Part shown: positions 11,107-24,965 of the stretch, piece by piece | Position numbering within the stretch: the first letter of the stretch is position 1 | Layout: each line of letters begins with the position of its first letter | Source of the DNA: Dysgonamonadaceae bacterium | GTDB taxonomy: Bacteria; Bacteroidota; Bacteroidia; Bacteroidales; Azobacteroidaceae | Assembly: GCA_031260045.1 (NCBI GenBank) | Contig: JAIRKO010000008.1 | Coordinates: 1-42,701, forward strand | Reading direction: 5' to 3' | Length of the DNA: 42,701 nt | Translations under genes and position numbers: made by a program | The notes under the pieces: generated by a model | The model's database searches: none | What the model was told of the DNA's origin: nothing | What the model saw: the letters and a program-made list of their open reading frames with translations, nothing else

Positions 11107-11830
11107 ATGATAAATTTACATCTCAAACACCGGACGTGTGCGTCGAAACCGTTCCTTAAATTATTCCGGAAAATACCGGCGCTCCGTTCTATAATTAGAT
11201 TATGTGAAAAAGAACTGTTCCGGAGAAAATGGCGAAAACAAAACGCCCACAACAATACCGTTGCGGGAAACATATTCCCGATTGATATTGTGAGTGTCGG
11301 GAAAATGAGCTATGGAATGTTGAATGTATTAAGCCACCGCCCGTCAATTGAAAGGCTTCAAATCGGAAATTATGTGTCGATTGCAGGCAACGTATTGTTT
11401 ATTCTCAGCGGGAATCACCGGATGGATATGATTACTAACTTTCCGGTAGTCAGCCTCTTACCCCCCCCCCCACTTATGCTCGCAGCTTGTAAACGTAGAG
11501 GGGAAAGGTCCTATTATCATTGACGACGAGGTGTGGATTGGGACAAATGCCGTGATCATGTCGGGGGTAAAAATCGCTAAAGGCGCTGTTATTGCAGCCG
11601 GTTCTGTGGTAACGAAAGATGTTCCCCCGTATGCCGTATGCGGAGGAAATCCCGCTCGCATTGTCAAATACCTGTTTTCCGCAGAAATAATTGACAAACT
11701 GACGTCGTTTCGTTTATCGGATGTGCCTTGCGAGCGGCTTCGCAATCGGATAGACGTCGTATATAAAAAGATTGAATCTGTGGACGATGCCGCGTTTGTT
11801 TTGCACAAATTAATGTCTGAAGAAGAATAG
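11107..11830 (+). CDS. CatB-type left-handed beta-helix O-acyltransferase, phase-OFF (frameshifted at poly-C)
   Basis: Reading from the ATG at 11107 gives a frame that ends at 11523, just after an 11-C tract (11461-11471). The next frame, open from the tract, encodes the rest: [20 protein letters not shown], then the hexapeptide-repeat segment [20 protein letters not shown] and [12 protein letters not shown]. Deleting one C (10 C) or adding two joins the halves into a 240-residue enzyme of normal size. Upstream residues include [21 protein letters not shown] text (as read: [20 protein letters not shown]), typical of the family's catalytic-histidine loop. Such enzymes acetylate sugars of surface glycans. 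The present consensus is OFF. It converges on the fucosyltransferase gene. Confidence 0.85.
11461..11471. repeat. Poly-C tract (11 C) inside the acyltransferase gene
   Basis: Eleven consecutive C on the plus strand. The upstream half of the gene is in frame 11107 and the downstream half is in the next frame, so 10 or 13 C restores the protein. Position and effect fit a slipped-strand phase switch. Confidence 0.95.
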
Positions 11831-11846
11831 AAAACTAAGTGAAAAG

Positions 11847-11881
11847 CCCGTCATTGCGGGCAGAGCGGTGAAGCAATCCAG
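11847..11881. repeat. REP-like repeat (GTCATTGCGGG...GAAGCAATCC)
   Basis: It lies in the convergent gap between the acyltransferase and fucosyltransferase ends. It shares the GTCATTGCGGG start with 7586 and the GAAGCAATCC end with 7708-7773. Confidence 0.65.
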
Positions 11882-11909
11882 AAAGAACATACCGTTTATT
11901 AAGTTCCGG

Positions 11910-12848
11910 CTATACCGTAATTTTAATCCACGTGTCCGGTATCAAATCCGGTGTTTCAGCGTCATTAAGAAACCGGCTGGGAGCGATTACCGTTTTTTCG
12001 GGAAATTGATTTAACCAAGCCGCCCACCAACTGAACGTACTGTTTGCAATGATATTATGTTTACATTTTGACATGAGGAACATATCCTGCCAAGAGTTTT
12101 TTCCCTGATTCCAATCTATGTAGTGTGAGTTCGGGATGTGCATATTTTCTCTAACCCATTGCATATCATTGGAAAAAACAAAAAACACAGGCGAGCCAAT
12201 CCGTTTTTGCATTTCCGCAATCGCTTTTTCATAGAAGAGCGGGGTGGATATATTCCCAAACCTTTCATGCAATAAATAATCTCCTCTTCTGATGTGTATT
12301 GAAATGCTGTTTGTTTGCTCTATCAAATGCAGTATTTCCAACGTTTGGCGTGATTTTTCCAAATGTTCAAAGGAGAAAGCGTTCAAAATTTCTTTTCGGT
12401 TTGAACAAAAATACTTTTCAGTTGCCCAACACCCTATATATACACTAAAACCGGAATGTTTGGGTATGACGTCATAATCTACGGTTCCGGTTTTTGTTTC
12501 ACCTATGGTATTAATATTCAATTTCTTTAATGCGAATATCGCAAAAGATGATATTTTACGGAAACCTTTTTTATGCTTGAATATCCATAGTTTACGGATT
12601 AGCCAAATAATATTTTTGAGCAACCTGTTTTTACAAATAACCGTATTGAATAAATTATTTAATTCACATCCGTTGTGTTGAATAATAGGTTCAAAATGAA
12701 TGAAATAATCACTCAGGGCGATATTGTTATTGTATTGTTTTTTTGCAAGAAAAAAGGCATATTGAAACATTTGATTGCCAAGCCCTCCCGATAAAGTAAT
12801 AATTTCTGTTGGTATTTTCGACATGGAATTATTTTTTTGTGAGTTCAA
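11910..12848 (-). CDS. GT11 alpha-1,2-fucosyltransferase
   Basis: The protein has 312 residues from the ATG at 12848. An ATG at 12824, giving 304 residues and starting 4 bp after the upstream stop, is an equally good start. GT11 motifs are clear: GGLGNQMFQYAFFLA near residue 21, HIRRGDYL near residue 186, and NSTFSWWAAWLNQFP near residue 265. The family transfers L-fucose from GDP-fucose to galactose at O-2, here probably on an envelope or capsular glycan. The start overlaps the end of the DUF268 gene by 20 bp, so translation is likely coupled to that phase-variable gene. AT-rich codon use suggests lateral origin. Confidence 0.9.
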   Translation of the reverse strand: MNSQKNNSMSKIPTEIITLSGGLGNQMFQYAFFLAKKQYNNNIALSDYFIHFEPIIQHNGCELNNLFNTVICKNRLLKNIIWLIRKLWIFKHKKGFRKISSFAIFALKKLNINTIGETKTGTVDYDVIPKHSGFSVYIGCWATEKYFCSNRKEILNAFSFEHLEKSRQTLEILHLIEQTNSISIHIRRGDYLLHERFGNISTPLFYEKAIAEMQKRIGSPVFFVFSNDMQWVRENMHIPNSHYIDWNQGKNSWQDMFLMSKCKHNIIANSTFSWWAAWLNQFPEKTVIAPSRFLNDAETPDLIPDTWIKITV

Positions 12849-22727: not shown

Positions 22728-22731
22728 TGTT

Positions 22732-23796
22732 TTATACTCTTTTCGTCATCGAATTAAAAATCTCCGCCGCCGTAGTTTTCAAATCATATTTCCAATGCCA
22801 TTCGGGATAGTGGGCTTTGAATTTGGACAAATCGGAAATATACCATATATGGTCGCCAATCCGGTTGGTTTCGCTGTAGGCGATGTTCATCTTCTTGCCC
22901 GTGATTTCTTCACACAGCGCAATGGCTTCCTTCATCGAACAGTTGGAAAACCGTCCTCCGCCCGCGTTATAAACCTCTCCCGGACGCGGATTTTGGTAGA
23001 ATTGCCAGAACATCCGTATCAAATCAAGCGAATGGATATTGTCGCGCACCTGCTTTCTCTTATAGCCGTAAACGGTGTATTCATCGCCCGTGATGGCGCA
23101 TTTCATCAGGTAGGAAAGAAACCCATGCAGTTTTGTTCCTGAATGCATGGGACCGGTCAGACATCCGCCGCGGAACACGCCCACGTTCATTCCGAAATAA
23201 CGACCATATTCCTGCGCCAACACATCGGCGGCAACTTTCGACACGCCGAAAAGCGAATGTTTCGACCGGTCGATGCGCATGGTTTCATCAATCCCGTTTT
23301 TGTAATACGGATGCGTTTCGGCTATTTCCCAGCGGCTTTCCAGTTCCGTCAGCGGCAGTTCGTTCGGCGTATCACCATAAACCTTGTTCGTGGAAGTAAA
23401 TATAAATACAGATCGCGGATTTGCATGCAAACGGGTACATTCCAAAAGGTTGGAAGTTCCGACAGCATTTACGCCGAAGTCCGTCAACGGTTCCTGCGCC
23501 GCCCAGTCGTGGCTGGGCTGAGCCGCCGTGTGTACAACCAGTTCAATGTCGCGGTTGTATTCCTTAAAAATACGTTCCAGCGCTTCAAAATTACGAATAT
23601 CAACGGCATGATGCTTGTAATTGCCGACGGTTTCCTTCAGCCGCGCTTCGTTCCACGAAGTGGAAGCATCCTGCCCGAAGAAATAAGACCGCATACCGTT
23701 ATCAATCCCGATTATCAAATCGGCTTTTTGCGAGAAAAACCCGACTGCTTCGCTGCCTATCAAACCCGCAGCGCCGGTTATAATTGCTACTTTCAT
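22732..23796 (-). CDS. Extended SDR sugar epimerase/dehydratase, CDP-paratose 2-epimerase-like
   Basis: The protein has 354 residues. It starts with the NAD-binding motif [16 protein letters not shown]. The catalytic motif region ([17 protein letters not shown]) has F in place of the usual YxxxK tyrosine. The [20 protein letters not shown] segment contains the upstream S/T and a YGD that is common in CDP-paratose/tyvelose epimerases. [17 protein letters not shown] and [13 protein letters not shown] are sugar-side motifs of the family. The substrate is probably a nucleotide-linked (deoxy)hexose. It is the second gene of a four-gene minus-strand operon. Confidence 0.85.
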
Positions 23797-23831
23797 ACGT
23801 ACATAATTTGCTTTTTAAGAAGGTCATATGG

Positions 23832-23880
23832 AACCCGCATTGTGTTCTTGCTCTTTGAATGTAATTTTTACATGCGGGTT
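23832..23880. repeat. Inverted repeat between the two epimerase genes
   Basis: Arms AACCCGCAT (23832-23840) and ATGCGGGTT (23872-23880) are perfect reverse complements with a 31-nt spacer. The spacer contains the smaller palindrome TGTAATTTTTACA. The element directly follows the restored stop of the upstream epimerase at 23881. Confidence 0.6.
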
Positions 23881-24965
23881 TCATATTGCCAATATATTTT
23901 TGAGTTGTTTTTCGTCTTTCTTCAACCAGTCGTAGACGTCGGCAAGGATTGCCTGTAGATTTCGTTTTGGATACCAGCCGGTTTCTTTCGTTACTAAAGA
24001 ATGATCTGTGAGATAAATGGGAATATCTCCCGTGCGGTTTTCTAAGGTTTTGTTTATGAGAGTTTTACCCCCCCCCCCCCGCGTTCACTTGTAATCGCGG
24101 CGCAGTGTTCGGTTAATTCCTTTAATGAAAAACTCACTGCGCGACCGCCGCCCACATTGTAAATTTTTCCAGAAACTTTATTGAAATTATTTAGTTCATA
24201 ATCAATCAAATCAAACAAATCATGGATATGAATCACGTCGCGCACCTGTTTGCCGGAGCCGTTATAACCGATGTACGATAGTTCTTTTTCCCAGAAATGG
24301 CGAGCCATCCAAAAAACAACCACTCCCTGATCTACTTTTCCCATCTGCCGGGGTCCGGCAATCACGCCGCAACGGTTGATTACCGCTTTTAAACCGTAAA
24401 ATGCCTCATATTCTTGAAGCATCAGTTCGGACGCCAGCTTTGTTGTTCCGTAGAAAGAACGCGCGCCTTGCAACGGAAATCTTTCGGAAATGCCATCCCG
24501 ACTGCATCCCGCCACGGGCTGCGTTTCTTCCAGTTCAAACCGCGATTCGTCTTCGCGGTAATTCAGATTTTCCAACGGTTTAATCGGATAGACACGGCTG
24601 GTGGAAAGGAATATAAAGCCTGCATTGTGCCGTTTTGCCAGAGCCAGCAGATGAAGCGTGCCGTTCAAATTCGTATGAATTAAATAATCCGGCGTTTCAT
24701 TCAAGCCCGCAAGTATGGACGGTTCGGCAGCAGCGTCGATAATAAAATCAATCTTTTCGTCAAAATTCAGGTCTTCCCTGTTGCGAACATCGCCGTGGAT
24801 AAACTCCACGCCGGCGGACTTCAAAAACGGGATGTTCAATTCCGAACCCCTTCGCTTTAAATTATCCAGCGCAATGATTTGCCGCTCCGGATATTTGTCT
24901 TTCAACAGGAAAGCAAGATTGGAACCGACAAAACCGGCACCGCCGGTGATTAAAATTCGCTCCAT
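23881..24965 (-). CDS. Extended SDR sugar epimerase, phase-variable, currently truncated at poly-G
   Basis: From the ATG at 24965 the frame encodes 303 residues and ends at 24054 just after a 13-G tract. Motifs: ILITGGAGFVGSNLAFLLKD, STSRVYPIKPLENLNY, SFYGTTKLASELMLQEY (catalytic Tyr-Lys), and KQVRDVIHIHDLFDLI. The other frame after the tract reads NRTGDIPIYLTDHSLVTKE, then TGWYPKRNLQAILADVYDWL, to a stop at 23881, exactly the missing C-terminus. Eleven or 14 G gives a 360- or 361-residue enzyme. It resembles CDP-paratose 2-epimerases and is a distant paralogue of the next gene. It is first in the operon. Confidence 0.87.
24068..24080. repeat. Poly-C tract (13 C; poly-G in the coding strand) near the end of the epimerase gene
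   Basis: Thirteen consecutive C on the plus strand. This is the longest tract in the window. The last 57-60 residues of the enzyme lie downstream in another frame. Confidence 0.95.

What the first reader, a model, noticed from the sequence alone, without database searches (positions are those of the whole stretch)
11461..24080. Four poly-C/poly-G tracts, all inside surface-glycan genes: a distributed phase-variation system
Seen directly: runs of 11, 10, 9 and 13 C at 11461, 13652, 22346 and 24068. I noticed no other G/C run above about six. Each lies inside a different glycan gene (acyltransferase, DUF268, methyltransferase, epimerase). In the three broken genes the missing part continues in another frame right after the tract, and a change of one or two bases restores normal protein length (240, 220 and 360/361 residues). 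Homopolymer slippage is an established ON/OFF mechanism in Campylobacter, Neisseria and Helicobacter. In Bacteroidales, DNA inversion is the better-known way to vary surface glycans, so a poly-G system spread over two loci 10 kb apart would be notable. Four binary switches could give 16 glycan forms (inference).
Basis: partly seen in the sequence, partly recalled or inferred. Interest (0 to 1): 0.92.

Follow-up and report, generated by a model that had tools for sequence, protein, structure and literature searches.

The report
Poly-G switches in glycan genes
A gut bacterium related to termite symbionts carries long single-letter DNA runs in genes that probably decorate its surface sugars, and comparison with relatives suggests the runs act as slip-prone ON/OFF switches, a trick well known in Campylobacter but little reported in this bacterial order.

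Summary
The four runs are real: 11, 10, 9 and 13 C at 11461, 13652, 22346 and 24068. They belong to a larger set: the genome (1.99 Mb, 81.6% complete) holds 17 G/C runs of 9 or more, where the 6-to-7 fall-off predicts 0.4. Twelve lie in ORFs: 8 of 12 in transferase or sugar-enzyme genes, 6 of 12 interrupting the frame. The 24 shorter runs found in ORFs all keep the frame, and at most 2 of those 21 ORFs are polysaccharide- or wall-related. Relatives give the best evidence: the methyltransferase has a run at the same place in four genomes, interrupted in all four, yet among the three close species the out-of-frame part shows dN/dS near 0.05; an FkbM methyltransferase has runs of 11, 13 and 10 at one site, interrupted, interrupted, open. 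Best reading: poly-G slippage contingency loci, a known kind, in a Bacteroidales lineage for which eight paper searches showed no report of such a system. Not shown: length mixtures in reads, reversibility, expression, any glycan change. 'Two loci' is too narrow, '16 forms' unsupported. Runs in a reduced relative lie mostly outside genes, so mutation bias contributes.

The parts
11461..11471 (+). Run of 11 C (coding strand C) interrupting the hexapeptide acyltransferase gene
11107..11523 (+). Acyltransferase, piece before and through the run (138 aa ORF)
   Evidence: matches one open tract-free frame in G007 together with the next piece
11531..11830 (+). Acyltransferase, piece after the run, in another frame (99 aa ORF, Hexapep)
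13652..13661 (-). Run of 10 G on the coding strand, near the start of the DUF268 gene; frame open
12829..13695 (-). DUF268 protein, 288 aa, open through the run
22346..22354 (-). Run of 9 G on the coding strand interrupting the class I methyltransferase; a run at the same place in G017 (9), G034 (9) and G007 (13)
22338..22727 (-). Methyltransferase, piece before and through the run (129 aa ORF); the rest follows in another frame (92 codons)
24068..24080 (-). Run of 13 G on the coding strand interrupting the epimerase near its end
24054..24965 (-). NAD-dependent epimerase, piece before and through the run (303 aa ORF); 61 more codons in another frame
11910..12848 (-). Glycosyltransferase family 11 gene between tracts 1 and 2 (context)
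19959..21266 (+). Group 1 glycosyltransferase (context)
21332..22159 (-). Glycosyltransferase family 2 (context)
22732..23796 (-). Second NAD-dependent epimerase, no run (context)

Best explanation
The runs are simple-sequence contingency loci. DNA polymerase slips on a run of nine or more G/C, the length changes by a base or so, and the frame of the gene is broken or opened (ORF-embedded runs) or the spacing in a leader changes (upstream runs). A population then holds cells with different sets of glycan-decorating enzymes (in this window an epimerase, an acyltransferase, a methyltransferase and a DUF268 protein), so the surface polysaccharide would vary from cell to cell. Shown by sequence: the runs, their excess, their bias to transferase and sugar-enzyme genes, the frame interruptions, runs at homologous sites in relatives with different lengths and frame states, and constraint on the out-of-frame parts. 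Inferred: slippage as the motor, reversibility, ON/OFF expression, a surface glycan as the product, and the pressure behind it (phages, or a protist or insect partner).
For: Excess: 17 runs of 9 or more against 0.37 extrapolated. Target bias: 8 of 12 run-bearing ORFs are transferase or sugar-enzyme types against 1 of 21 ORFs with runs of 7-8 (P 0.0003; with a Mur ligase counted too 2 of 21, P 0.0012); interrupted 6 of 12 against 0 of 21 (P 0.0008). Same-site runs: methyltransferase in four genomes, 9, 9, 9 and 13; FkbM2 with 11 interrupted, 13 interrupted, 10 open; a SusC-type receptor leader with 18 and 12. Constraint: methyltransferase part after the run dN/dS 0.046, 0.055, 0.054 in the three close pairs, all interrupted; own epimerase part after the run 0.14 and 0.18; FkbM1 part after the run 0.18. 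Run lengths 9-18 and target kinds resemble the Campylobacter sets described in PMC6321876 (passages).
Against: No reads, strains or expression: length variation within a species is not shown. The methyltransferase is interrupted in 4 of 4 genomes, none open. FkbM1 has a run of 9 both in own (interrupted) and G017 (open): flanking indels, not run length, make that difference. Epimerase, DUF268 and acyltransferase relatives have no run at the window's site. The G034 epimerase is broken near residue 55 where there is no long run, so frames break in these drafts for other reasons too. In G002 6 of 19 runs lie in ORFs of 150 aa or more, all open, and 13 outside such ORFs, so runs also gather without being switches. 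Not all targets are glycan enzymes: aldolase, radical SAM, receptor leader, and in G017 an Hsp70 end. Methyltransferases were counted as glycan-type by kind and neighbourhood, not by substrate.
Confidence: 0.75

Rival explanations
1. Neutral: these genomes have weak repair of slippage, G/C runs grow anywhere tolerated, and accessory glycan genes tolerate them because they are on the way to being lost.
For: Runs also sit outside genes (5 of 17 own; 13 of 19 in G002 outside ORFs of 150 aa or more) and counts range from 0 to 72 within the genus. The window's tract genes are accessory (found in 2 to 4 of 38 genomes).
Against: Low dN/dS on both sides of the run in interrupted genes; a run kept at one FkbM2 site although synonymous sites are near or past saturation.
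Confidence: 0.12
2. Sequencing or assembly error: the runs exist but their lengths, hence the frame states, are wrong.
For: Source reads and technology are unknown; the genome is a 57-contig draft of 81.6% completeness. G034's epimerase is broken with no long run there.
Against: Error does not explain the excess of long runs, the gene bias or same-site runs in separate assemblies. The 24 runs of 7-8 in ORFs are all in frame.
Confidence: 0.07
3. Recoding without DNA change: ribosome or RNA polymerase slippage on the G run, or re-initiation at the run, makes a fixed amount of whole or two-piece enzyme.
For: All four methyltransferase copies are interrupted, yet the three close ones are conserved on both sides; in G017 and G034 an ATG abuts the run in the frame that continues.
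Against: Lengths and frame states differ between FkbM2 homologues, which a fixed recoding site would not need; the abutting ATG is absent in the window's copy.
Confidence: 0.06

Closest known systems
Poly-G/C contingency loci of Campylobacter (the phasome; PMC6321876, passages)
   Same: G/C runs mostly 9 or longer, mostly in ORFs, multi-locus, with methyltransferases and radical-SAM proteins among targets
   Different: Other phylum; here lengths reach 18, no strain-to-strain or experimental variation is known, and 5 of 17 runs lie outside ORFs
Invertible promoters of Bacteroides capsule loci (PMC12632263, PMC11868660, passages)
   Same: Same order, same kind of target (surface glycan), same supposed benefit
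   Different: Inversion by recombinase switches whole operons; here single genes are interrupted at homopolymers and no fitting inverted repeats were found
Acetyltransferase frameshift in a run of four C in Bacteroides fragilis 638R (PMC3090145, one passage)
   Same: Surface-polysaccharide acetyltransferase broken at a C run; those authors suggest slippage as a possible source of variation
   Different: A run of 4 in one strain; here runs of 9-18 at many loci

Membership tests
Simple-sequence (poly-G/C) contingency loci | G/C runs of switching length in excess of chance | tested here: met
   17 of 9 or more against 0.37 extrapolated
Simple-sequence (poly-G/C) contingency loci | Run placed so that a length change breaks the frame or shifts a leader | tested here: met
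   6 of 12 ORFs interrupted at the run; run in a receptor leader in two species
Simple-sequence (poly-G/C) contingency loci | Targets concentrated in surface-structure genes | tested here: met
   8 of 12 against 1 of 21 control ORFs by Pfam kind; substrate not known
Simple-sequence (poly-G/C) contingency loci | Run length differs between homologues | tested here: met
   FkbM2 10, 11, 13; methyltransferase 9 and 13; receptor leader 12 and 18; FkbM1 9 and 9
Simple-sequence (poly-G/C) contingency loci | Length variation within one population | not testable with these tools
   no reads held; one genome per species
Simple-sequence (poly-G/C) contingency loci | High-frequency reversible change of expression | not testable with these tools
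   needs culture or reporter
Bacteroides invertible-promoter phase variation | Inverted repeats flanking a promoter of the glycan operon | tested here: not met
   one search lists 10 imperfect pairs in 9000-27000: 3 overlapping palindromes and 7 pairs 608-1845 nt apart; by reading, none flanks a promoter-sized segment

The most novel reading that the evidence does not exclude
A genus-wide poly-G phasome in Bacteroidales symbionts of insect guts in which the run travels with its flank as a small cassette: TA follows the G run at once in 12 of 17 own cases (3 of 28 control runs), whichever strand is coding, and a GTTAAATAATGTTAAT-like sequence precedes it in non-homologous genes, so runs may be copied between genes by recombination, or made by a dedicated process, rather than arising one by one.
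Probability: 0.2. Interest if true: 0.8.

Novelty: new member of a known kind. Interest (0 to 1): 0.58.

Why it matters
The well-known surface variation of Bacteroidales is by DNA inversion. A poly-G contingency system there, in relatives of termite-gut symbionts, would mean that the slippage strategy has arisen outside the pathogens in which it is mostly studied, and would offer a system where the pressure could be phages or a protist partner rather than vertebrate immunity. It also warns that interrupted glycan genes in such draft genomes should not be called pseudogenes without comparison.

Tried and rejected
DNA inversion: no fitting repeats. SusC-type ORF broken by its run of 18: three-frame reading puts the likely receptor start roughly 150-190 bases downstream of the run in own and G017, so the run is in the leader; I moved it from the ORF class to the outside class before the final tests (one search used 13 ORFs, searches use 12). 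In some searches I counted 0 of 21 control ORFs as glycan; one search shows that one (L157) is a Wzz-type chain-length protein, so repeats the test with 1 and with 2 (Mur ligase) of 21. The nearest named relative (L020) does not match the tract-1 and tract-2 genes upstream of the shared transferase gene, so it gave no same-locus comparison. The first dN/dS pass for G007 took a wrong frame (rows with 9 or 10 of 47 identical); redone for own against G007, where synonymous sites are saturated. Four of 28 control runs (the first in L139, and those in L146, L149 and L150) have no clear ORF and were not scanned. Of 52 G017 runs I read 34, and scanned only some of their ORFs. In G001 several runs lie within 200 bases of contig ends, possible read artefacts; I drew nothing from its count. 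Eight paper searches showed no report of a homopolymer phase-variation system in Bacteroidales in the titles and abstract starts listed; PMC3090145 suggests slippage at one B. fragilis locus. Two Bacteroides papers were opened and use the word in other senses. Most subscription papers are not in the library.
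Full report
Observation. The window holds C runs of 11, 10, 9 and 13 at 11461, 13652, 22346 and 24068 and no other G/C run above 6. A Markov simulation of the window gave 0.225 runs of 9 or more on average. Pfam names the genes: hexapeptide acyltransferase, DUF268 protein, class I methyltransferase, NAD-dependent epimerase; neighbours include glycosyltransferases of families 11 and 2 and a second epimerase, and a group 1 glycosyltransferase at 19959-21266. 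At tracts 1, 3 and 4 the open frame ends soon after the run and another frame continues; at tract 2 the frame is open.

Where it is. The window is one contig of a 1,985,626-base, 57-contig genome, 81.6% complete. By serine hydroxymethyltransferase the nearest named relative is the MAG 'Dysgonamonadaceae bacterium Nc350_bin116' at 95%, then Bacteroidia genomes MS502-62 and MS499-82; a 'Candidatus Symbiothrix' MAG is also in the list. A genome of the same genus, G002, has five contigs, one of 1,114,206 bases; from memory that is the chromosome size of Candidatus Azobacteroides pseudotrichonymphae, which no call confirmed (one search did not find the number with it). Passages of PMC11481507 describe Azobacteroidaceae as including ectosymbionts and intracellular symbionts of termite-gut flagellates. 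A termite-gut Azobacteroidaceae is therefore likely, but inferred.

Genome-wide set. Runs of exactly 6, 7 and 8: 146, 19 and 9; of 9 or more: 17, lengths 9 to 18. The 6-to-7 ratio predicts 0.37. I read the surroundings of all 17. Twelve are in ORFs: the four window genes; an HpcH/HpaI aldolase (close to its end); a 343-aa protein without Pfam hit; a group 1 glycosyltransferase (close to its end); a gene without Pfam hit broken into 243- and 411-aa ORFs; a radical-SAM protein; two FkbM methyltransferases; a Methyltransf_24 protein. Five are outside: between serS and a 728-aa gene, between a cation-efflux gene and dnaA, upstream of a radical-SAM/FeMo-Co protein, between a 302-aa gene and a Por-secretion-tail protein, and in the leader of a SusC-type receptor. 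Eight of 12 ORFs are transferase or sugar-enzyme types; methyltransferases are counted by kind and neighbourhood, not by proven substrate.

Control. All 28 runs of 7-8 were fetched. Twenty-four lie in 21 ORFs, each open through the run; the other four have no clear ORF. Hits of the 21 include IF-2, DNA gyrase/topoisomerase A, chorismate synthase, FolB, ribosomal L25 and glycine cleavage; one is a Wzz-type chain-length protein and one a Mur ligase. Long against short: glycan-type 8/12 against 1/21, P 0.0003 (2/21, P 0.0012); interrupted 6/12 against 0/21, P 0.0008. Interruption alone could come from length; the gene bias could not.

Relatives of the window genes. Each is accessory: matches in 2 to 4 of 38 genus genomes, own included, at the E-values used. 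Methyltransferase: a run sits at the same place in G017 (9), G034 (9) and the more distant G007 (13), all interrupted, and the bases just upstream differ by small indels. dN/dS of the part after the run is 0.046, 0.055 and 0.054 for the three close pairs; of the part before, 0.14-0.15. Epimerase: G017 and G034 have no run there; G017 is open, G034 is broken near residue 55 without a long run; own part after the run has dN/dS 0.14 and 0.18 against them. Acyltransferase: both pieces match one open, run-free frame in G007. DUF268: G020, G009 and G001 have no run at that site, but G001 has a run of 12 some 430 bases upstream of its matching part.

Relatives of other tract genes. FkbM2 has a run at one site in own (11, interrupted), G017:C231 (13, interrupted) and G017:C87 (10, open); synonymous sites are near or past saturation while the protein is conserved on both sides. 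FkbM1 is interrupted in own and open in G017 with runs of 9 in both; flanking indels make the difference. SusC-type leaders carry 18 (own) and 12 (G017).

How special. In the genus 34 of 38 genomes have a run of 9 or more, counts 0 to 72. In a sample of 247 Bacteroidales genomes 196 have one; own ranks fifth per Mb (8.6) after G002, G258, G238 and G069, read from the rows with 16 or more runs, sizes rounded. So other Bacteroidales may have such sets. In G002 6 of 19 runs lie in ORFs of 150 aa or more, all open, and 13 outside such ORFs. In G017, of 34 of 52 runs read, some lie in glycan-type genes (FkbM, epimerase/dehydratase, ATP-grasp) and others at an Hsp70 end, in or near receptors and between genes.

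Flanks. On the G strand TA follows the run in 12 of 17 own cases against 3 of 28 control runs (P 6e-05), also where the G strand is not the coding one. A GTTAAATAATGTTAAT-like stretch precedes the run in FkbM2, in the methyltransferase of G034 and G007 and in the own Methyltransf_24 gene; GTTAA within 20 bases upstream occurs in 14 of 67 runs of own, G017, G034, G007 and G001, in 0 of 19 in G002 and 0 of 28 controls. Homologues are among the 14, so they are not independent. I have no explanation that I would defend.

Literature. PMC6321876 (passages): in Campylobacter poly-G/C runs of 7 or more are the main repeats, 77% in ORFs, most of 9 or 10, with methyltransferases and radical-SAM proteins in the core sets. 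PMC11868660 and PMC12632263 (passages): in the passages seen, Bacteroides phase variation with a named mechanism is by inversion. PMC3090145 (one passage): a frameshift in a run of four C in a B. fragilis acetyltransferase, with slippage suggested. PMC5478533 (search listing): a phage of Candidatus Azobacteroides is known. No report of a homopolymer phase-variation system in Bacteroidales appeared in the listings.

Verdict. Best explained as poly-G slippage contingency loci aimed mainly at surface-glycan enzymes (0.75): a known kind in a lineage where it seems unreported. The decisive missing piece is read-level length variation.

Noticed in passing
own genome, 17 runs; L009-L019 and window: TA follows the G run at once in 12 of 17 cases (3 of 28 control runs), whichever strand is coding.
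   Followed up: partly
L017:3813, L017:10482, L114:2668, L115:2962, L204:9700: A GTTAAATAATGTTAAT-like sequence stands directly before the G run in non-homologous genes and several species.
   Followed up: partly
G002 (L119-L133): A reduced relative with a 1,114,206-base contig has 19 runs of 9 or more, 13 of them outside ORFs of 150 aa or more.
   Followed up: partly
L117:6728-6770: Four G7 runs in a 12-base tandem repeat in G009.
   Followed up: no
L019:4036-4053 and L208:2249-2260: Runs of 18 and 12 C in the leader of homologous SusC-type receptor genes, a possible promoter or leader switch.
   Followed up: partly
G238, G258, G069 in the order sample: Three Bacteroidales genomes of other families have 33, 28 and 42 runs of 9 or more, a density above the window's genome.
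   Followed up: no
window 19072-19080 and 33625-33633: Two runs of nine A; not studied.
   Followed up: no
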